DNA of 29,951 nucleotides, taken from positions 1 through 29,951 of the IMG/VR virus record IMGVR_UViG_3300014494_000009; one strand, 5' to 3'. The stretch comes from a virus. Of this stretch, positions 688 to 25,757 are shown piece after piece. Both the position numbers and the translations under genes were made by a program. A model generated the notes under the pieces. That model was given only the letters and a program-made list of their open reading frames with translations. It was not told where the DNA came from and searched no databases. Every line of letters begins with the position of its first letter. The stretch's first letter is position 1.

Positions 688-1368
688 CTATACCAGTGCG
701 GGAAAAATTGAATCACCGTCAGTTGCCATCATGGATTCCGCGTGCTCAAACGAGATGTAGAAATAGCCATCTTTGCCCCACGATGGACCCCATGAGTTTG
801 CGAACTTGAGGAGTCGCGCTTCCATATCGCATCCAACGCACTCGATGCAATGGCCACCACGGACCGCTCCAGTGGGCTTCACGAGTCCGTTATCGTCTGG
901 ATCATCGTAACCCTCGTACCAATCCCAGCCAACGTCACCGGGTCCAGTCTGCAGAGCGGTCAGGATATCGGTGAGTGAGAACGCGTTGGCGAAGCTCTTG
1001 ACGAGTCCGAGTTGTCGGCACGCGTTCCAAGCGCTCGTAGTATCGGTTCCGGTGTCGTCGGGTGGATACGTGCCATCAATCGAGTCCAGCGTCGTTGCCA
1101 GCTCGTAGATTTTCAGCGCATCAGCTTCGGTGAACTGATGCGTGAATGGACCAGTGGAGAGTACGCCAGCGGCACCGTTGCCCTCGCATGAGCCAATTTC
1201 ACCTTGATCGAATATTGGTACATTGCGTTTCCATTCGATGGTGCGCAGCGCAGAGCGAGGCAACGAACGAACGCCGTGCTGCTCTCTCCTCGGGTCAATC
1301 GATACATGACGCCCCAGTCGCTTGCCGGGTACGATGATCTCAGGTTGCAGTCTGACTAATTGGTTCAT
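688..1368 (-). CDS. Papain-like (C1A) cysteine protease
   Basis: This 226-aa protein carries the papain-family hallmarks in the right order. The oxyanion Gln55 and nucleophile Cys61 lie in FDQGEIGSCEGNGAAG. The catalytic His173 lies in VRGGHCIECVGC. Asn191 lies in FANSWGPSWGKDGYFYIS, the classical C1A NSWG.xWG..GYF block. There is no signal peptide and only about 50 residues before the catalytic core, so no long inhibitory propeptide. The start ATG overlaps the previous stop (ATGA, 1365-1368). It sits after a holin-like gene and a secreted repeat protein and before fibre genes. It could be a virion-associated or lysis-stage protease, or act on a host surface protein. The fold call is firm and the biological role is inference. 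Confidence 0.85.
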   Translation of the reverse strand: MNQLVRLQPEIIVPGKRLGRHVSIDPRREQHGVRSLPRSALRTIEWKRNVPIFDQGEIGSCEGNGAAGVLSTGPFTHQFTEADALKIYELATTLDSIDGTYPPDDTGTDTTSAWNACRQLGLVKSFANAFSLTDILTALQTGPGDVGWDWYEGYDDPDDNGLVKPTGAVRGGHCIECVGCDMEARLLKFANSWGPSWGKDGYFYISFEHAESMMATDGDSIFPALV

Positions 1369-18106: not shown

Positions 18107-19735
18107 TCACCCACCGAAGCGTCGAGTCATAAACTCGGCTTGTTCGGTTGCTGTAATGCTGCGGACGGCGTGGAAACCATCTTCGGTCTTGAAGAACTTG
18201 GGCTGATCGACTTGAGCGACCATGGACGTTGCGAACAATCGTTCTTGGTGCTCAGTGAGTGGTTCTTGCTGAGTACCGTTGACAGGCTCAGTTGCAGCTT
18301 GGATGGTTGACTTCGCACCGAGTCCAGCGATTGCAGCAGCAACCGTAGAAGGTGCAGCGACACGCGGCCAATTCTTAACTGCGTCCTCGACAGTTTTGAG
18401 GTCGGCTGACATCAAAGTCTTTCGCTGCGCATCGGAAAAGTCGGTGCGGTTTGCGAGTAGAGCGGTTCGCGTCGTAGCTTCAAGCCGCGTGATACGCGAC
18501 GCCGTTTTTTCCTCGTTGTCCTTGTCGTTGTCGGAAGGACCACCTTCGTTGTCCTTGTCGGGCTCCGCATGTTCCGGCTTTGGTTCAGCTTCGGCTGCCT
18601 TAGGGGCAGAGTTGCAAACCGCGATCATCTTGCGCGCCTTCTCTTTGTTTTCGTCAGTCTCGTTTGGGTCATCTACGGCTGCTTGTAGCGCCGCCATTGT
18701 TTCAGCAAAACCTGCCACTTTGGCCTCCTTTTTTGGTGTTGATTGCGAGGCCCGTTGTGCCTCAAATGTGCCACTGCTTAGCAGTGAAATAACTTCGTCT
18801 TCAGTTGCAATCTGATCGGCTAGACCCTTATCGATTGCAAACTGTCCATGAAAGCACGCTGCCTGGTAACTACGTACTTGCTCGATTGAAAGTGGTCGGT
18901 ACGCGGCAACGCACTTGAAGAATTCCTCAGCGAGCGCGTTGCATTCAGCATCGAACGCTGCGACTACTTCGTCTGTCTTCTCGATGTGCGGGTTGGTGTC
19001 CGCCTTGCGAATTCCGCTGGAAACTACCGTGTATTTGAGCCCGAGTTGCTTGTCGGCTCCGGTGCAATCGATAAGATTGTGAATGACACCGATGCTGCCG
19101 ACCATTCCAGTTTGCGGAATGAAGATATAGTCTGCCGCACAGGCGAGCGCGTAGGCTGCGCTGAAAGATTTTGAGTCAACGTAGCAGTACAGTTTCTTTC
19201 CTGCTGCTGCCATGATGGCGCGAATTTCCTGGACTGTGTCGAGGCATCCATCAACAAGTCCACCTCCCGAGTCGATGGACATAAGCACGCAACGAGCTGG
19301 ACTCGATGCGGCGATTCGAATGCGTTGCTTGATCGCATCGTACGAGTCGGACCACGTCTCATGATGGGCAAGAGGCCCACCCCAACCAACGTCAACTATC
19401 GCTAACCTATCGGTGCTGCGCGGTCTAGGTGGGCGAGGGATGTCGAACTGTGCGCCGACTAGGTTGATTGGAGCAGCGAGGTAACCAGGTACGAGCCACT
19501 GACGAGTTTCGTACAGAGTAGCTCTCGACGCTTCATGTTCCGGTTCAGGTTCGCGAGTTTCTTTCGAGGGATCCGATTCTTCATCTTCATCGTCACCATC
19601 GTCAATATCATCTTCGTCATCACCATCCGGATCTTCATCCACGCGAGTCAGAGGAGGAGCTTCGACATTTTCAGTCTTGAGCCAATCTGCATACGAGGCA
19701 GATGCTTTGACCTGATCGAATTGCTCGGCGCTCAT
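18107..19735 (-). CDS. Head maturation protease (S49/SppA-like) with C-terminal scaffold region
   Basis: This is a 542-aa protein. The protease core spans about 85-330. LMSIDSGGGLVDGCLDTVQE (151-170) is the SppA-type strand and glycine loop. The nucleophile is Ser192 in SFSAAYALACAADYIF, followed by TGMVGSIGVI. Lys244 in SSGIRKADTNP is the likely general base. The N-terminal 70 residues are extremely acidic (DEDPDGDDEDDIDDGDDEDE, 33-52). The C-terminal 200 residues are Ala/Glu/Lys-rich and helical, and are likely the internal scaffold released by self-cleavage, as in lambda C/Nu3 and Mu I/Z. The start overlaps the topoisomerase stop (ATGA). The acidic N-terminus is unusual and may interact with basic capsid or DNA-binding proteins. 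Confidence 0.88.
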   Translation of the reverse strand: MSAEQFDQVKASASYADWLKTENVEAPPLTRVDEDPDGDDEDDIDDGDDEDEESDPSKETREPEPEHEASRATLYETRQWLVPGYLAAPINLVGAQFDIPRPPRPRSTDRLAIVDVGWGGPLAHHETWSDSYDAIKQRIRIAASSPARCVLMSIDSGGGLVDGCLDTVQEIRAIMAAAGKKLYCYVDSKSFSAAYALACAADYIFIPQTGMVGSIGVIHNLIDCTGADKQLGLKYTVVSSGIRKADTNPHIEKTDEVVAAFDAECNALAEEFFKCVAAYRPLSIEQVRSYQAACFHGQFAIDKGLADQIATEDEVISLLSSGTFEAQRASQSTPKKEAKVAGFAETMAALQAAVDDPNETDENKEKARKMIAVCNSAPKAAEAEPKPEHAEPDKDNEGGPSDNDKDNEEKTASRITRLEATTRTALLANRTDFSDAQRKTLMSADLKTVEDAVKNWPRVAAPSTVAAAIAGLGAKSTIQAATEPVNGTQQEPLTEHQERLFATSMVAQVDQPKFFKTEDGFHAVRSITATEQAEFMTRRFGG

Positions 19736-20724
19736 GCTGCCTTGCCTTCAACGACGCGCTCGCGATATGCGTCAATCACGCGAGGGTTGATGTACTTTTC
19801 TTTGCAGATTGCTGGAGTGTTGCCGAGGAATTTGGAAGTTTCTTCAATCGCTTTCTTGATGTTCGCATCTGCTTCTTTCGCAGAAATCTTCGGGGGTGGC
19901 GCACTTTTCGAAAGCACGTCGAAGCACATTGAGCTCGCGTGAAACGTGCGAAAGTCTTTTGCTGTGATCTTGTCCGGCGATGCCTTCTCTAGATACCCGT
20001 TCACATCTGCCGCAGTCGAACCGAAGATCTTGTCACCGGGTTTCTTGCCTTCGGTGCGCTTCACGATCTCGGCAGCCAAGTCGCCTTCAACTCTACGGTT
20101 CCATTCCTTATGCGACTTTCCGGGAAACTTCAGGTTGATCGAACCATCTGAATTCTTTATGACATGCTCGGCGCGCAGAGTGGTAGCGCCTACGCTCCCC
20201 GTATCCTTCTCTGCATCGCTGCCTCCGACTCGTATTGTAGTCGTATCGATCAAACGAACGACCACCGCGCTATCAGCAGTCTTTGGATCATTCGATTTCG
20301 AATCACTTTCGATAGTCTTTCGAAGAGCTCCGATGTTCTTCGCCATCTTGGCAGCTTTCCCAAATTTGTAATCGGCTTGCTTCTGCATGTGCTCATCGGT
20401 GTATTGATACGTTTTGACTTCTTTACCGTTGCGGTTCTTGCGGAAAATGACTGCTTTTAGGCCAGTTTCACCGCTGAACTCATGAACCTTGTTGATCGTG
20501 TCGAGTGGAAATCCACCATAACCCTGCTTGCCGTTCTTGTCCTTTGGCTGGCGTGACGCGAGATCGGCGCGCGAAAGCTCCTTGCCTTCACCATGGATCT
20601 CCGACTTTACGGTCTTCGACTTGTCACTTTCGGAACTGCCACCTCCGCCACCAGAACCGAACTTGCCGTCGTCCTTGCGCGGGTGCTTCGATTCCTCAAA
20701 TTCCTTTTCAGCACGGAACGTCAT
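19732..20724 (-). CDS. DNA topoisomerase IB with phage-head-type N-terminus
   Basis: This is a 330-aa protein. Residues about 85-320 match the poxvirus/bacterial type IB topoisomerase. KTYQYTDEHMQKQADYKF (104-121) precedes the catalytic domain. The active-site set is complete: Arg165 in TTIRVGG, Lys203 in FPGKSHKEW, Arg259 in TAKDFRTFHASS, Asn302 in the family His/Asn position, and nucleophile Tyr311 in NTPAICKEKYINP. The N-terminus carries ESKHPRKDDGKFGSGGGGG, a HPR.DDGKFG motif common in phage head-module proteins, plus a Gly/Ser linker. ATGA overlaps join it to the portal upstream and the protease downstream. It occupies the position where Mu encodes the gpF head protein. It would relax DNA supercoils through a 3'-phosphotyrosyl intermediate. 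A virion or packaging role is inferred. Confidence 0.88.
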   Translation of the reverse strand: MTFRAEKEFEESKHPRKDDGKFGSGGGGGSSESDKSKTVKSEIHGEGKELSRADLASRQPKDKNGKQGYGGFPLDTINKVHEFSGETGLKAVIFRKNRNGKEVKTYQYTDEHMQKQADYKFGKAAKMAKNIGALRKTIESDSKSNDPKTADSAVVVRLIDTTTIRVGGSDAEKDTGSVGATTLRAEHVIKNSDGSINLKFPGKSHKEWNRRVEGDLAAEIVKRTEGKKPGDKIFGSTAADVNGYLEKASPDKITAKDFRTFHASSMCFDVLSKSAPPPKISAKEADANIKKAIEETSKFLGNTPAICKEKYINPRVIDAYRERVVEGKAA

Positions 20725-22349
20725 GCTGCAACTTCCTTCGGTGCATCGGTTGACTTGCCAACGTCCCCAAGTTTCTTCTCACCCTCTTCGCCACCAATCG
20801 GTTCAAGACCTTGAGAGCGACGGACTTCGTCAATCGTTATCGCCTTCGCAATGTCGGTCGGCGCCAGCGTGAGTTTGGGTGCGGTAGAGGCTCGCGCGAT
20901 TGGCCTCAGTTCTAGGCCGCTTTCACGTTCAAGCATCTTGCTCATGCTCTCTGGCTTTACCTGCAGGCCAACTTGGCTTGCGAGTTCAAGAATTACCTTG
21001 ATCTGCTGGATGTCGATTCGTTCGGCAACGTCAACACGACTCGATGTCACTGGTATCGAGTACTGCGCAATGATCTCGTCCATGTCGATCTCGCGCCCGT
21101 ACTTCGCAAGCATCGGCTCCAGTTTCTCAACTGCACCGGCGCATTGAATCCACGACTGTGCGGCGTTGGTTAGATCCTGCGGCGAACGTGTGTCGAACTC
21201 AATGCACGGTGAACCCTCGATGTTTTCGACACCGTATTGCGAAATCGTCCACTGCGGCAGTATCTGAGTGTTCTCGCACATTGCCCACGAGTCGGCGGGC
21301 TCTTGAATGAACTCTTTGCGAATGGTTTGGAACAAGTTGTTGTTCAGAAAACCAGTTCCACCAGTCGTTGTGACCTCTTGACCAGCTGCGCAAATCGTGA
21401 GTTCTCGGTCCCAACGTGTGATCGACTTGTCGAAAATGTCGGCGCCTTCGGAACCAACTTCTAGAACCTTTGCGTCAAATCCAGGGGCTGGCGCGCTTGC
21501 CAGAAAGTTGGAACCCCAGTTGGCAAACGCCATGAACCAGGACTCGCGGTCACCTTGCGACGCGCCAACGGGTGCAGTCGTTACGATGCCCGGGTTCGCC
21601 ATTCCGCGTTCGAGATTTCCCGAGCACAGTGCAGCATTTTCCTTGAGAATGAAGGCACGTGAGGCGGCGTACCAAATGCCGCGTTCCCACGGTGCTGCGT
21701 CAACGCCAGCGGGCTCCCACAGAACCCAATTGCCATCGCCCTTGATGATCGGCAGCAGTCCACCGGATGCTGAGCGATAGAACCAATTGCCCATGTTGGA
21801 CGACCAGCGATAGACGAGGCCCTCGGGTGGCAACCGGCGGAGTACTGGGTACGACCGCCCAGGAACCTTGAGCAGCTCACCAACCGCGACGCCCATACCA
21901 ATGCCGTCCTGGATCATCAGCTTGGCCTGGTCGGGCGGAATCATCGCATCGTGAACGCTCTGGACGGACTCGTGGCCCTCCTGCAGTTGCGCGACGTACT
22001 CAGCTTTACCCCTGAATTTACGTGGAAGCGTGACTATTCCGGCGCATCGAAGATTGAAAACTCCGCTGAAAACACCGTCACTCAGTACTGACTTCCAAAG
22101 TAATGCGGCACGGAATAGGTCACCGACCGCGGCATCCTGCATCGCCAGCTTGCGATCTTGGAGGAGCCAGTCGGTGATAAATTCGGGGCGGAGCGACAGG
22201 TGCCCACCCATCGCCTTGCGCCCTCGTTCGATGATCGGATCATCAATTCTAGGCCAATTTGCCCCAGGTTTCCCGACGTAACCCGACCGCGCCAGCAACA
22301 CGTCGATTACTCGAGATGCTGTCGCGGCTAGTGCGGTTCCTGCGCTCAC
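20721..22349 (-). CDS. Portal protein, Mu gp29-like (DUF935 type)
   Basis: This is a 542-aa protein starting at GTG (22349). No good ribosome-binding site is visible, so a start further in is possible, although the GANWPRIDDPIIERGRKAMG stretch (29-48) looks genuine. The core has AVGDLFRAALLWKSVLSDGV near 76-95 and then FNLRCAGIVTLPRKFRG, then LPPEGLVYRWSSNMGNWFYR near 175-194. GIVTTAPVGASQGDRESWFM (about 252-271) begins the stretch leading to the gp29-type core. The gp29/DUF935 family forms the dodecameric vertex ring through which DNA is packaged. Position, size and pattern all agree. The downstream topoisomerase overlaps its stop (ATGA). Confidence 0.82.
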   Translation of the reverse strand: MSAGTALAATASRVIDVLLARSGYVGKPGANWPRIDDPIIERGRKAMGGHLSLRPEFITDWLLQDRKLAMQDAAVGDLFRAALLWKSVLSDGVFSGVFNLRCAGIVTLPRKFRGKAEYVAQLQEGHESVQSVHDAMIPPDQAKLMIQDGIGMGVAVGELLKVPGRSYPVLRRLPPEGLVYRWSSNMGNWFYRSASGGLLPIIKGDGNWVLWEPAGVDAAPWERGIWYAASRAFILKENAALCSGNLERGMANPGIVTTAPVGASQGDRESWFMAFANWGSNFLASAPAPGFDAKVLEVGSEGADIFDKSITRWDRELTICAAGQEVTTTGGTGFLNNNLFQTIRKEFIQEPADSWAMCENTQILPQWTISQYGVENIEGSPCIEFDTRSPQDLTNAAQSWIQCAGAVEKLEPMLAKYGREIDMDEIIAQYSIPVTSSRVDVAERIDIQQIKVILELASQVGLQVKPESMSKMLERESGLELRPIARASTAPKLTLAPTDIAKAITIDEVRRSQGLEPIGGEEGEKKLGDVGKSTDAPKEVAA

Positions 22350-22446
22350 GAGTCAAGTGATGGCTGATTTGACTGGCTAGGCGCAATGATTTATCGCAAG
22401 CTATCAAAAGTGTCTTTAGTGCACATTCACGGGAGATATTGAGAAC

Positions 22447-22689
22447 ATGACCAGAATGCTTGCGAACCATTTGCTGATTCGGATTGCAAACTCCGCGCCC
22501 TGTGGTCTCATTGCCGTGCGCACGTACTTACAAGGTGGTCTTCGACGTGCAAGCGTGATCGAACGCATTGAGTTAGCGTTGCGAGCGAATGACCTCGCGA
22601 GTTACATCACTGCCCAAGGCGCTTACCCAAACGCGCCACTCATTGCCGATGCTTCCGGTGATCCAGGTACCCCGGGATGGCGAGCGTGA
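22447..22689 (+). CDS. Possible small plus-strand gene beside the CRISPR array
   Basis: This is an 80-aa frame, MTRMLANHLLIRIANSAPCG and onward, with GGGAGA about ten bases before its ATG. It ends seven bases before the array. The middle (SVIERIELALRANDLASYIT, 37-56) could form an amphipathic helix. It would be the only plus-strand gene in the window and faces the array. It has no recognised family. It may be chance coding potential in the otherwise gene-free 22350-22696 gap. If real, it could be a small regulator or an anti-CRISPR-like companion. In that gap I saw no convincing anti-repeat, promoter or terminator. Confidence 0.22.
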   Translation: MTRMLANHLLIRIANSAPCGLIAVRTYLQGGLRRASVIERIELALRANDLASYITAQGAYPNAPLIADASGDPGTPGWRA

Positions 22690-22696
22690 TATTCTT

Positions 22697-22946
22697 GTTG
22701 CAGTTGACGGCCTGCACGCCGTTGATGGTTTCTTGATGGTTTCCGGGCAGCTGCGGAGCTCGGCATACGTTGCAGTTGACGGCCTGCACGCCGTTGATGG
22801 TTTCTACTCAGGCCGTCGTCTGTCATCCGTTGCGCGTTGTTGCAGTTGACGGCCTGCACGCCGTTGATGGTTTCTTCTTCGATGTGGCGAGTGATGCCCT
22901 GCCATTGCTTGTTGCAGTTGACGGCCTGCACGCCGTTGATGGTTTC
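22697..22946 (-). CRISPR. Mini CRISPR array: four 36-bp repeats, three spacers
   Basis: Four identical 36-bp repeats lie at 22697-22732, 22769-22804, 22839-22874 and 22911-22946. On the plus strand each begins GTTGCAGTTGAC and ends GTTGATGGTTTC. The spacers are 36, 34 and 36 bp (22733-22768, 22805-22838, 22875-22910) and unrelated to each other. The centre of the repeat is a hairpin, ACGGC and GCCGT around a six-base loop. The minus-strand repeat begins GAAACC and ends TGCAAC. Its first two bases are the last two of the effector's TGA stop, so the array is probably transcribed with the gene on the minus strand, although repeat ends alone do not settle direction. The spacer at 22733 starts with a copy of the last 11 bases of the repeat. 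No cas1, cas2 or leader was seen. Confidence 0.93.
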
Positions 22947-24345
22947 ATGTCTCGCGGATCTCTAATGGTATCGTGTCTTTGGATGCCACATTGCGAGCGG
23001 CGTTGATTCTTCGGTGAATCACTGCCCCGCAACTACCACATTTACAGATCGGGTCCTCTCGATAACCAAACGATTCATCGGACTTTTCACCGCATCGCGA
23101 GCAAGTAACGGAATTTCCGTAGCACTCCACCTCTCGCACGCGAGAGCCAAATCGTTGTTTGAGCAGCGCCGGACCAAGTCTCATTACTGATATTTGATTA
23201 CTGGCCTTTCCGTCCCATTCATGTGGTAGGTGGCCCACATCACTGCTCTCATGCTCTACCTTGATCATCTCTACTGCAGCTAGTGGCTTGACAAGCTCAT
23301 TGTACAATTGATGCATGACGCGTCGTTTCATTTTCTGATGCAGTCTACTGACGGTAGTTCGATCGGCGGATGGACGCTGAATTGATTCTAGAGACTGCAT
23401 TTGTGCGATCTTTCGAGACAGATCATGATTGCGAGGATTCTCTATGATTCGATCATGCTCCCCATCTGATGTCGCGGCAATAACGTCTAGACCCATACTC
23501 ACTCCGATTACGCTTCCCGGAATTGCTTCTGGAAGCGCACGGATCGGTACTACCTGTTTGATCGCCGCATACCATCCATCAGCCTGCTGAGATATCGCAA
23601 CTCCCTGCATGATACGTCCCGTTGGTATGCGCCCTGGTAACTTTCCTAAAAACTTCATACCTTCAAACGATATCTGGCAGTCGTATGATCGGTGTTGTCC
23701 GGGCTTGTCGTATTTGGGGGTAAAGTTACCGACCTTCAAATTCTCACCACTACGAACCAACAAAGGCATATCGTCTCCAAGACGGCGAAACCTCTTTCTT
23801 CTCTGATTTTTTGCTCGACCTTTTCCACCTGCAGCTTTTCCGCTAGCAAAAAAAGTATGAACGAGCGCTTGAACGAGATGCGCGCTTGGCACCACTTCAA
23901 TAGGTTCTTCTAGATTTCCAAGAATCACTTCGCGAAAAAACTGATAGTCCTGCTTTAGTGGTCGCTCTTCGCTTGAGTAGAGCGCGATCATTTCCGTGAG
24001 CTTTGGTCTCCAACTGCACTCCGGAAGCTTGTTGGTTGCATCGTGTACGCATCTAGACCATTCACGGACCGCATCGCGATGTGCCTCCGCTGATGCTTTC
24101 GATTCAGATGCTGTCATTGATTCGTAATCGGGACGCGTCGGTTTCGGTGATACTAGTCCGTAATGCACCGCATACGCTTCTCGAGCGTCGATGACCTCCT
24201 GAGTCTGTTTGCATAGCCAGTTCCAGCATGTGCGCAATGCGTTTTGCAATGCGAACAAACGCGCTTCCTGCTCTCGCGTTGGATAGATTCTTATCACTTC
24301 ACCGCGTATCTCGTGTCCTTCTGGAATTTCAAAATTAGCTTTCAT
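22945..24345 (-). CDS. Compact Cas12/TnpB-like effector with degenerate RuvC active site
   Basis: This is a 466-aa protein. I prefer the ATG at 24345, two bases after the stop of the upstream gene. A GTG at 24360 would add five residues. Residues 1-170 are a helical recognition-like region. A basic segment KGRAKNQRRKRFRR (175-188) and a WED-like strand region GVAISQQADGWYAAI (248-262) follow. RuvC-I reads GVSMGL (281-286), with Ser283 in the place of the catalytic Asp. RuvC-II keeps Glu364 (KVEHE). The zinc finger uses C415, C418, C436 and C439, with an extra C434. RuvC-III reads HRRINAARN (444-452), with Arg446 in place of Asp. Family members of this size (TnpB, type V-U) use RNA-guided binding. 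Loss of two of three metal ligands predicts no DNA cleavage. The array that abuts its stop supplies guides. The subtype cannot be assigned by eye. Confidence 0.9.
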   Translation of the reverse strand: MKANFEIPEGHEIRGEVIRIYPTREQEARLFALQNALRTCWNWLCKQTQEVIDAREAYAVHYGLVSPKPTRPDYESMTASESKASAEAHRDAVREWSRCVHDATNKLPECSWRPKLTEMIALYSSEERPLKQDYQFFREVILGNLEEPIEVVPSAHLVQALVHTFFASGKAAGGKGRAKNQRRKRFRRLGDDMPLLVRSGENLKVGNFTPKYDKPGQHRSYDCQISFEGMKFLGKLPGRIPTGRIMQGVAISQQADGWYAAIKQVVPIRALPEAIPGSVIGVSMGLDVIAATSDGEHDRIIENPRNHDLSRKIAQMQSLESIQRPSADRTTVSRLHQKMKRRVMHQLYNELVKPLAAVEMIKVEHESSDVGHLPHEWDGKASNQISVMRLGPALLKQRFGSRVREVECYGNSVTCSRCGEKSDESFGYREDPICKCGSCGAVIHRRINAARNVASKDTIPLEIRET

Positions 24346-24347
24346 TC

Positions 24348-24614
24348 TCAGCACCCACACTTCATTCCGACCGTTGCCGATTCAACTCGTTCGCACCCCA
24401 GCCCCCGCATGCACCCGCGCAGCACGCCGTCTGCCTGATACCAGTGTGACGACGCCTTGACTTGGCACGCCATTGGACAGCAGTACTGGCGAACGTTGGA
24501 CTGGAAGCATGAGGCGTTACAATGGCGACACGCAAGAAGCCAGGCGACGAATAGAAAAACTGCTACTAACATTTTCACAGTTCGACCGTTGTCGTCGTGA
24601 AGTGACCGCGTCAT
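24348..24614 (-). CDS. Small cysteine-rich, membrane-anchored or secreted protein
   Basis: This is an 88-aa protein whose ATG (24614) overlaps the previous stop (ATGA) and whose own stop is two bases before the effector ATG, so translation of the effector is probably coupled to it. Residues 16-28 form a hydrophobic segment (LVAVFLFVAWLLA) before Cys29. Ten cysteines follow or flank it (29, 32, 36, 45, 46, 50, 68, 74, 86, 88). This could be a signal peptide or anchor with a disulfide-bonded or metal-binding domain outside. A shorter start at Met15 would place the hydrophobic segment at the N-terminus. No family was recognised. Genes this close to a Cas effector deserve testing as partners. Confidence 0.6.
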   Translation of the reverse strand: MTRSLHDDNGRTVKMLVAVFLFVAWLLACRHCNASCFQSNVRQYCCPMACQVKASSHWYQADGVLRGCMRGLGCERVESATVGMKCGC

Positions 24615-25168
24615 TGTGTCACCCACTTCCCACCGATGGTTGAACAACTCGAGTGCAGCGCTACGAGGTTCGAATATGCCGCATCGAGATAGTAGTCAGT
24701 CTCCACAGCATCGGTGTGCATGTGACCCATGTCAATGCGAATCGAGTACGCGCACGAACTGGCAGCAGTGAGCCCTGCGCACAAATTGGTTAGGCTAGCT
24801 TGGTACTCCGATGTCTGGTAGATGCAAACGCTCTGTGCCGTCGCATATGCGAAGTTTTCGCACGATATGAGTCCCTGTGCCGAGTCGTAGTAGCCGTAGG
24901 AAACGAACGCTGTTGTGACTCGATGCCCACCAGTGCCGCATGGAATCTCTGGACCGGCGTCGATAATCTCGTCAACGGATTGCGCCGATTCAATTCCCTC
25001 TGCTGGAACTCCGGAGCACCCGGCAGCCATGAGCGCCGCCAGTGCAATCGCGCGCTTGATGGTCGATTCGATTTGCGAGGCAAGGCGTTCGCACTCGAGT
25101 CGTGCGCCGCGTGCCTTGCGTGACAGTTCGGTCTGGTCGGGTTCGGGTTGGATGTAGGAAATGTTCAT
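24611..25168 (-). CDS. Lipoprotein-like protein with conserved cysteines
   Basis: This is a 185-aa protein with ATGA overlaps on both sides. A 37-residue charged leader precedes IKRAIALAALMAAGCSG (37-53), which reads like a lipoprotein signal with Cys51, but the leader is long for a signal peptide. The mature part has Cys residues at spaced positions (CENFAYATAQSVCIYQTSEY near 102-121 and HSSCSTIGGKW near the end) and alternates Tyr, Ser and Ala, suggesting a small disulfide-containing fold. It may be an exported phage accessory protein such as a superinfection-exclusion factor, or a cytoplasmic protein with a chance lipobox. Function unknown. Confidence 0.6.
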   Translation of the reverse strand: MNISYIQPEPDQTELSRKARGARLECERLASQIESTIKRAIALAALMAAGCSGVPAEGIESAQSVDEIIDAGPEIPCGTGGHRVTTAFVSYGYYDSAQGLISCENFAYATAQSVCIYQTSEYQASLTNLCAGLTAASSCAYSIRIDMGHMHTDAVETDYYLDAAYSNLVALHSSCSTIGGKWVTQ

Positions 25169-25392
25169 GATTTGGTCTCGTCGAACTCAACAGGGCGCAG
25201 CAGAATGTCCATCGACTCGGTAATCTCGCTATCAAGACGCGCCTCGGTATACATGTGGATTGCGTCACTGAGAGCCATGACTGAGTCGCTCTTCGTGGGT
25301 CCGATGATCGCGAGTAGCTCCTTGGCGCGCATGACAAGCAGGTCGGCGGCGAGAATCACGAGGCTCTTGGCGGGTCGCACTGTGGTGGTCAT
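25165..25392 (-). CDS. Small helical protein, unknown function
   Basis: The ATG at 25392 overlaps the upstream stop (ATGA), giving 75 aa starting MTTTVRPAKSLVILAADLLV. The longer frame from 25446 is rejected because it would run into the upstream gene. The protein is helical and acidic toward the C-terminus (EITESMDILLRPVEFDETKS, 56-75), with a moderately hydrophobic first helix. No motif was recognised. It belongs to the run of small overlapping genes between terminase and effector. Confidence 0.6.
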   Translation of the reverse strand: MTTTVRPAKSLVILAADLLVMRAKELLAIIGPTKSDSVMALSDAIHMYTEARLDSEITESMDILLRPVEFDETKS

Positions 25393-25757
25393 GACTTCGG
25401 GTCCATTTTTGTTTGTGCGACCAGATCGTTTGCACAATCCGGACAAATACCAACGTTGATCGCTAGATTACCCGAAATGTCTCTCTTAACCTCGGAGTCG
25501 AGGTTACAGCCGCAAGATTTGTCTGGTCTCCGTTTGCTGGCCCAAGATGGAAATGGTTTGAGCTCGGGGTATTTGGTCATCAGAATCGAGAGGTATGTCG
25601 GGCTCACGCCGATGGCTTCGGCAGCGTCTGACTGATAGTGGTGCTCTGCGACGCGCGCGAGAACGTAGGACACTGCGACGCGGTGTAGTCTGTGATCAGA
25701 TGGGCAGTCGAGACAAGCACCGAGCGCGACTGCTACTGGGTTTTTGCTGACGGTCAT
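25389..25757 (-). CDS. HTH and cysteine-pair protein, possible DNA-binding regulator
   Basis: This is a 122-aa protein with ATGA overlaps on both sides. Residues 42-63 (QSDAAEAIGVSPTYLSILMT) fit a helix-turn-helix (A..IGVS..YLS). Cys15/Cys18 (CLDC), Cys82/Cys84 (CGC) and Cys105/Cys108 (CPDC) could bind zinc in two halves. It may regulate the accessory genes or the CRISPR locus nearby, or act in packaging. The DNA-binding call rests on the HTH pattern only. Confidence 0.6.
   Translation of the reverse strand: MTVSKNPVAVALGACLDCPSDHRLHRVAVSYVLARVAEHHYQSDAAEAIGVSPTYLSILMTKYPELKPFPSWASKRRPDKSCGCNLDSEVKRDISGNLAINVGICPDCANDLVAQTKMDPKS

What the first reader, a model, noticed from the sequence alone, without database searches (positions are those of the whole stretch)
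22697..24345. Phage-borne mini CRISPR locus with a Cas12/TnpB-like effector predicted to bind but not cut DNA
A compact effector (about 466 aa) keeps the fold motifs of TnpB/Cas12 and is followed directly by a four-repeat array, inside the late operon of a contractile-tail phage between accessory genes and the portal. Two of three RuvC metal ligands are replaced. RNA-guided, non-cleaving relatives are known (Cas12m; TnpB-derived TldR repressors), but here the effector has its own multi-spacer array and is carried among structural genes. I infer a silencing system aimed at rival phages, plasmids or host genes.
Basis: partly seen in the sequence, partly recalled or inferred. Interest (0 to 1): 0.95.

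Follow-up and report, generated by a model that had tools for sequence, protein, structure and literature searches.

The report
Phage-borne, non-cutting miniature CRISPR locus
A bacteriophage carries, in the middle of its structural genes, a small CRISPR array with its own one-protein effector whose DNA-cutting site looks broken, so it probably silences rather than destroys the DNA it is guided to; what it targets is unknown.

Summary
Window 22945-24345(-) encodes a 466-aa TnpB/Cas12-fold protein; its stop codon overlaps the first of four identical 36-nt repeats (22697-22946) with unique 36/34/36-nt spacers. RuvC residues D1 and D3 are replaced (S283, R446); E359 is kept. All 46 viral loci fetched as relatives keep both aspartates, and no CRISPR-like array was found in their held flanks. 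A sister phage lacks effector and array but keeps the flanks, so this is an accessory cassette. No anti-repeat was found on the effector strand. There the repeat fits a pseudoknot template taken from two type V-M (Cas12m) repeats, suggesting a self-contained crRNA; the strand is not proven. The effector fits none of the subtypes tested (V-F, V-U4, V-M); profiles put it nearest TnpB, on a very long branch. Best reading: a divergent, probably cleavage-dead, tracr-free type V-like silencer. Cas12m, phage TldR and compact type V systems of landfill viruses are precedents, so this is a new variant of a known kind. No spacer target was found; transcription, DNA binding and loss of cutting are inferred.

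The parts
22945..24345 (-). TnpB/Cas12-fold effector, 466 aa (GTG at 24360 would give 471 aa)
23497..23499 (-). codon AGT = S283, in place of the first RuvC aspartate
   Evidence: aspartate in 46 of 46 viral relatives
23269..23271 (-). codon GAG = E359, the RuvC glutamate, kept
23008..23010 (-). codon AGA = R446, in place of the third RuvC aspartate
   Evidence: aspartate in 46 of 46 viral relatives
23029..23103 (-). four-cysteine zinc-finger/TNB segment (C415, C418, C436, C439), intact
22911..22946 (-). CRISPR repeat 1 (shares two bases with the effector stop codon)
22875..22910 (-). spacer 1 (36 nt)
22839..22874 (-). CRISPR repeat 2
22805..22838 (-). spacer 2 (34 nt)
22769..22804 (-). CRISPR repeat 3
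22733..22768 (-). spacer 3 (36 nt; last 11 nt duplicate the repeat start)
22697..22732 (-). CRISPR repeat 4
22661..22696 (-). sequence after the last repeat; overlaps the 3' end of the convergent small ORF, so probably native flank and not an acquired spacer (inference)
22637..24346 (.). cassette: blastn homology to sister phage L003 stops at one edge and resumes at the other
   Evidence: no effector match in the whole sister record
22447..22689 (+). small convergent ORF with a counterpart in L003 (no Pfam match)

Best explanation
A compact, self-sufficient type V-like silencing cassette carried by a phage. Shown: intact effector frame with TnpB/Cas12 domains; array of identical repeats with unique spacers starting at its stop codon; two RuvC aspartates replaced; absence from a sister phage; no anti-repeat found on the effector strand; a repeat that can form a V-M-like pseudoknot on that strand. 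Inferred: effector and array are co-transcribed; the repeat pseudoknot is the handle of a tracr-free crRNA; the effector binds guide-matched DNA without cutting it and blocks transcription or replication, as Cas12m does. My guess at the benefit is silencing of co-infecting or resident mobile DNA (about 0.35), ahead of host or phage genes (about 0.25); both lie inside the 0.6 given here.
For: Domains; model pTM 0.60, best VIA match ISDra2 TnpB Z 18.7 over 311 residues, rmsd 3.7. Dead site: D1 and D3 replaced here, kept in 46 of 46 viral relatives; E359 kept. Array. Intact zinc finger and frame argue against decay. Cassette: homology to L003 breaks at 24346 and 22637, no effector match in the sister record, effector GC3 0.45, lowest of 13 genes measured. 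Tracr-free: on the effector strand, 21500-25500, best duplex with the repeat -32.7 kcal/mol against -32.5 (sd 2.3) for shuffled repeats. Pseudoknot: strict template 9 of 40000 dinucleotide shuffles, and 102 of 59832 phage 36-mers over both strands; relaxed template fits the effector strand and not the other strand for the window and for both V-M loci, and 146 of 59832 phage 36-mers. Precedent: Cas12m blocks plasmids and phages by binding (passages of PMC11013384).
Against: No protospacer found. No sigma-70-type promoter match on the effector strand in 21800-25200, so expression would rest on read-through of the late operon, an odd time for immunity, or on a promoter of another type. Strand not settled: the other strand folds into a more stable hairpin (-12.0 against -8.5 kcal/mol) and holds a mirror pseudoknot. 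The template was chosen after the fact from two V-M repeats, one beside an effector gene with internal stops; only one of the two fits the strict form. Cas12m proteins with an intact triad also do not cut (passages of PMC11013384), so active-site letters do not decide cutting. One copy of the locus only: no selection test possible.
Confidence: 0.6

Rival explanations
1. Same mechanism, other aim (a sub-case of the best explanation; its share is inside that 0.6): an RNA-guided repressor of host or phage genes, like TldR, that helps the phage life cycle rather than fighting other elements.
For: Phage-encoded dead TnpBs (TldR) repress host flagellin (passages of PMC13418256). Late-operon position and only three guides would suit fixed targets.
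Against: The TldR case has a guide RNA beside the gene and a partner gene; here there is a multi-spacer array and no further gene in the cassette. No spacer match inside the phage above shuffles.
Confidence: 0.25
2. Counter-defence decoy: the dead effector or its RNAs tie up a host CRISPR or TnpB system, as proposed for phage Cas9 with a dead RuvC.
For: Precedent of phage-encoded RuvC-dead Cas9 (passages of PMC10910872 and PMC11656645).
Against: It carries an array with unique spacers, not needed for a decoy; the phage Cas9 case has no array. The effector is far from the subtypes tested, so mimicry of a known host system is not evident.
Confidence: 0.1
3. It still cuts: other residues, or a partner nuclease, do the work of the lost aspartates.
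For: E359 and the fold are kept; neither activity nor metal site was tested.
Against: Two ligands that 46 of 46 viral relatives keep are replaced, one by arginine.
Confidence: 0.08
4. Decaying TnpB beside a tandem repeat, without function.
For: Long branch (2.89), lost catalytic residues, low model confidence in places.
Against: Intact 466-codon frame, intact zinc finger, four perfect repeats with unique spacers.
Confidence: 0.07
5. RNA-guided transposition or integration of the phage (CasMu-V-like).
For: Mu-type portal; Cas12 without RuvC-III and with MuA is known (passages of PMC10910872).
Against: Apart from the TnpB-type effector itself, no transposase was recognised among the window proteins scanned; the sister phage carries a DnaB-like helicase, pointing to ordinary replication. 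The window is a fragment and not every ORF was scanned, so this is not excluded.
Confidence: 0.03

Closest known systems
Subtype V-M, Cas12m
   Same: Single compact effector; binding without cleavage and no tracrRNA in Cas12m (passages of PMC11013384), proposed here; repeats of like length (36 nt here, 37 nt in two V-M loci fetched); pseudoknot order and two-base AC tail shared with those two; V-M is found on plasmids and some prophages (passages of PMC11656645).
   Different: Not V-M by sequence: PADLOC Cas12u1 10.6 bits, hhalign probability 29% over 69 columns. 466 aa against about 600. Triad S-E-R, against D-E-D, H-D-D and N-D-D reported (passages of PMC11013384).
TldR (TnpB-like nuclease-dead repressors)
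   Same: TnpB-derived, RuvC-dead, phage-borne in one clade (passages of PMC13418256).
   Different: The prophage TldR has a guide RNA beside the gene and a partner flagellin gene; here a CRISPR array with three spacers and no partner gene in the cassette.
TnpB, IS200/IS605 and IS607
   Same: Closest by profile: hhalign probability 98.7, E 2.4e-16 to three TnpBs; structure Z 18.7.
   Different: Lacks D1 and D3, scores 77.9 bits against the curated cut-off 100 of NF040570, carries an array.
Compact type V effectors beside arrays in landfill viruses
   Same: Phage-borne compact type V-like effectors with arrays and no predicted adaptation genes, some without recognised RuvC motifs (passages of PMC12607003).
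   Different: Those sequences were not at hand; whether this effector belongs to one of their unnamed clades is untested.
CasMu-V and phage RuvC-dead Cas9
   Same: Interference-dead CRISPR effectors in mobile elements (passages of PMC10910872).
   Different: CasMu-V has MuA; the phage Cas9 has no array.

Membership tests
Class 2 type V CRISPR-Cas (broad sense) | single RuvC-fold effector next to a CRISPR array | tested here: met
Class 2 type V CRISPR-Cas (broad sense) | array transcribed and processed into crRNA bound by the effector | not testable with these tools
   needs small-RNA sequencing and pull-down
V-M (Cas12m) | effector sequence in the Cas12m family | tested here: not met
   PADLOC Cas12u1 10.6 bits, E 0.046; hhalign to two V-M proteins probability 29%, 69 columns, while a TnpB (L011) gives 94%
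V-M (Cas12m) | repeat-derived pseudoknot handle | tested here: inconclusive
   effector strand fits the template, other strand does not; but the template rests on two V-M loci, was chosen after the fact, and the transcribed strand is unproven
V-M (Cas12m) | no tracrRNA | tested here: inconclusive
   no anti-repeat above shuffles on the effector strand, 21500-25500; on the other strand the array's own complement filled the list
V-M (Cas12m) | long helical REC insertion (Roof/REC2) | tested here: inconclusive
   helix 79-105 in the model and 406 residues aligned to 8pm4, Z 12.4, rmsd 4.4, but the model of nuclease-intact TnpB L021 aligns 404
V-M (Cas12m) | binds but does not cleave dsDNA | not testable with these tools
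   needs biochemistry
V-F / V-U4 (Cas12f, Cas12n) | effector scores with the family as members do | tested here: not met
   window protein 64.8 and 59.8 bits with PDLC01700 and PDLC00933; seven nuclease-intact TnpB-type proteins score 196-711 bits with the same two models, so the hit is generic
TnpB nuclease | intact RuvC D-E-D triad | tested here: not met
   S-E-R
TnpB nuclease | NCBIfam guided_TnpB curated cut-off (100 bits) | tested here: not met
   77.9 bits
TldR | RuvC-dead TnpB derivative | tested here: met
TldR | one guide beside the gene rather than a CRISPR array (as I understand the family; the passages seen describe a TldR-gRNA cassette) | tested here: not met
   four repeats, three spacers
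CasMu-V / CAST | transposase genes in the element | tested here: inconclusive
   none recognised among the window proteins scanned, the effector's own TnpB matches aside; the record is a fragment and not every ORF was scanned

The most novel reading that the evidence does not exclude
An independent step from TnpB to CRISPR made inside phages: a TnpB lineage that lost its nuclease, gained a tracr-free crRNA array at its stop codon, and became a programmable repressor, deserving a type V subtype of its own, with a V-M-like crRNA handle reached by convergence or kept from the TnpB guide-RNA core.
Probability: 0.3. Interest if true: 0.8.

Novelty: new variant of a known kind. Interest (0 to 1): 0.62.

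Why it matters
CRISPR effectors are thought to have arisen from TnpB several times. A dead, very small effector with its array fused to the gene end and no evident tracrRNA would be a compact natural example of the step from a single-guide transposon nuclease to a multi-guide silencer, in a virus. It would also add to the few cases in which phages carry RNA-guided repressors, and is small enough to be a useful DNA-binding tool if it works.

Tried and rejected
Close relatives of the effector: none by single-protein scans of viral contigs; one TnpB in genome contigs; 4 phage records and 21 plasmid records, all under 60% identity and none with 80% of the query covered in one place; 0 of 398 genomes of one phylum at E 1e-18 (which itself says an empty answer shows nothing). 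Repeat relatives: none in viral contigs by a degenerate pattern. Targets: no convincing match (the seeds need 20 exact bases). The 1 phage record (E 0.3) and 23 plasmid records (listed matches 23-30 nt, E 0.02-1) were treated as chance. The genomes of possible hosts were not searched for spacers; the host is unknown.

PADLOC Cas12f/Cas12u4 label: rejected, because TnpB-type proteins score far higher; two of the seven controls, L010 and L021, may themselves be Cas12n-like. Cas12m by structure: first looked special (Foldseek query TM-score 0.52 against 0.46-0.47 for TnpB ternary complexes), but the control model of intact TnpB L021 aligned to Cas12m over almost the same length, so it is not used as evidence; the order differs in the control (TnpB ternary complexes 0.53-0.56, Cas12m 0.47-0.49). 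Array-like signals near viral relatives were checked: L032 is an 86-bp tandem repeat, L015 a 24-bp repeat inside an open frame, L031 a 50-bp two-copy repeat. The array test asks for three exact 20-mers or 15-mers 45-100 apart and sees only the held flanks, about 4 kb or less a side. In one search the middle column printed was not the catalytic glutamate; E359 rests. The first pseudoknot test (15 of 20000 shuffles, 19 of 4986 phage 36-mers) had excluded the other strand by a loop limit; one search showed a mirror pseudoknot there, so strand was re-tested against V-M repeats. By the strict template one of the two V-M repeats fits; the second fits with a gap of one base. In one search shuffles of the other strand fit the strict template 81 of 40000 times. 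Sequence likeness to V-M repeats is weak on either strand: 10 to 96 of 500 shuffles score as well. Rfam: no match in 20000-25500. Tree placement: very long branch, not trusted. Two wider searches for V-M loci gave only the same two. Rows dropped: alignment A3, used for the model and in the tree, held 40 of the 46 viral relatives (L027, L033, L038, L046, L053, L054 left out) plus L002; A6 held 36 rows.

Full report
What is there. The window is a 29,951-base IMG/VR virus record. On the minus strand, 22945-24345 encodes 466 aa with OrfB_IS605, HTH_OrfB_IS605 and Cas12f1-like_TNB domains above Pfam cut-offs. Its stop codon shares two bases with the first of four identical 36-nt repeats at 22697-22946; 100 shuffles gave no match. 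The three spacers are 36, 34 and 36 nt; the third ends with an 11-nt copy of the repeat start.

The nuclease site. In alignments with seven TnpB-type proteins and 46 viral relatives the first RuvC aspartate is S283 and the third R446 in the window protein. All 46 viral loci keep aspartate at both places, as do the seven. The glutamate, E359, and the four zinc-finger cysteines are kept. Loss of cutting is inferred from this; it is not shown. Cas12m proteins with a complete D-E-D triad also fail to cut (passages of PMC11013384), so the triad is a guide, not a proof.

A cassette. A sister phage, L003 (portal 85% identical), aligns on both sides but not over the effector and array: blastn homology stops at window 24346 and resumes at 22637. 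The whole sister record has no effector match. In the sister the slot holds other ORFs. The effector's GC3, 0.45, is the lowest of 13 genes measured (0.50-0.65 for the others). The effector ATG lies two bases after the stop of the upstream ORF, and no sigma-70-type promoter match was found on its strand, so read-through from the late operon is the likely source of expression (inference).

What the effector is. Profiles put it nearest TnpB: hhalign probability 98.7 to three TnpBs, 96.7 to the L021/L010 pair, 29 to two V-M proteins. The PADLOC Cas12f and Cas12u4 hits of 65 and 60 bits are generic, because seven TnpB-type proteins score 196-711 with the same models. In a tree of 48 rows it has an end branch of 2.89 and an unsure place. 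The AlphaFold2 model is moderate (mean pLDDT 65.9, pTM 0.60); VIA-align gives ISDra2 TnpB Z 18.7 over 311 residues (rmsd 3.7) and Cas12m 8pm4 Z 12.4 over 406 (rmsd 4.4). A control model of a nuclease-intact TnpB, L021, gives the same Cas12m chain over 404 residues, so the extra coverage is not special.

The guide RNA. On the effector strand from 21500 to 25500 no stretch pairs with the repeat better than shuffled repeats do, so no tracrRNA is evident there. Two type V-M loci were found in 199 genomes of one phylum. Their arrays lie downstream of the effector gene, and on the gene strand both repeats form an H-type pseudoknot followed by a two-base AC tail. The window repeat fits this template on the effector strand (ACGGC/GCCGU and UGCAG/CUGCA, then AC) and not on the other; the same holds for both V-M repeats. 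Chance: 9 of 40000 dinucleotide shuffles and 102 of 59832 phage 36-mers for the strict template, 146 of 59832 for the relaxed one. Against it: the other strand makes a more stable hairpin, a mirror pseudoknot exists there, the template was chosen after the fact, one V-M repeat misses the strict form, and one V-M effector gene has internal stops. I lean to the effector strand, unproven.

Targets. None found: blastn of the array against phage and plasmid records, ungapped comparison with the window and L003 against shuffles, and 20-nt seeds of the three spacers in viral contigs.

How it probably works. Effector and array are transcribed together; the repeat folds into a handle; the effector holds one guide per complex, opens matched DNA and stays bound, blocking transcription or replication. 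The steps after the anatomy are inferred from Cas12m, which protects E. coli from plasmids and phages by binding (passages of PMC11013384). Rivals are a TldR-like aim at host or phage genes, a decoy against host defence, retained cutting, RNA-guided transposition and decay.

Known or new. Precedents: Cas12m on plasmids and some prophages (passages of PMC11656645), phage TldR (passages of PMC13418256), compact type V effectors beside arrays in landfill viruses, some without recognised RuvC motifs (passages of PMC12607003), CasMu-V and phage RuvC-dead Cas9 (passages of PMC10910872); Cas12m structure and evolution (passages of PMC10442227). In the listings of eight searches of the held library I recognised no paper on this locus; only the best-ranked papers of each search were listed and many journals are not held, so this is weak evidence of absence. 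I rate it a new variant of a known kind.

Noticed in passing
window 19732-20724(-): Topoisomerase IB catalytic core (PF01028, E 1.2e-37) between portal and head protease; in sister phage L003 the portal ORF is followed directly by the protease ORF, so this looks like a second accessory insertion in the head genes.
   Followed up: partly
window 688-1368(-): Papain-family cysteine protease match (PF00112, E 1.2e-6) at the far end of the late genes.
   Followed up: no
window 22447-22689(+) and L003 9656-9976(-): Small ORF opposite to the late operon, with a counterpart in the sister phage, convergent with the array; no Pfam match.
   Followed up: partly
L003 8591-9160(+): 189-aa ORF with an internal repeat lies in the slot where the window has the CRISPR cassette; no Pfam match.
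   Followed up: no
L063 4881-6407(-): V-M locus whose effector frame ends early, without the zinc-finger end, beside a degenerate array.
   Followed up: no
L032 4789-5203: 86-bp tandem repeats shortly after a viral TnpB gene; not CRISPR.
   Followed up: yes
L015 6235-7155: 24-bp tandem repeats inside an open frame downstream of a viral TnpB gene.
   Followed up: partly
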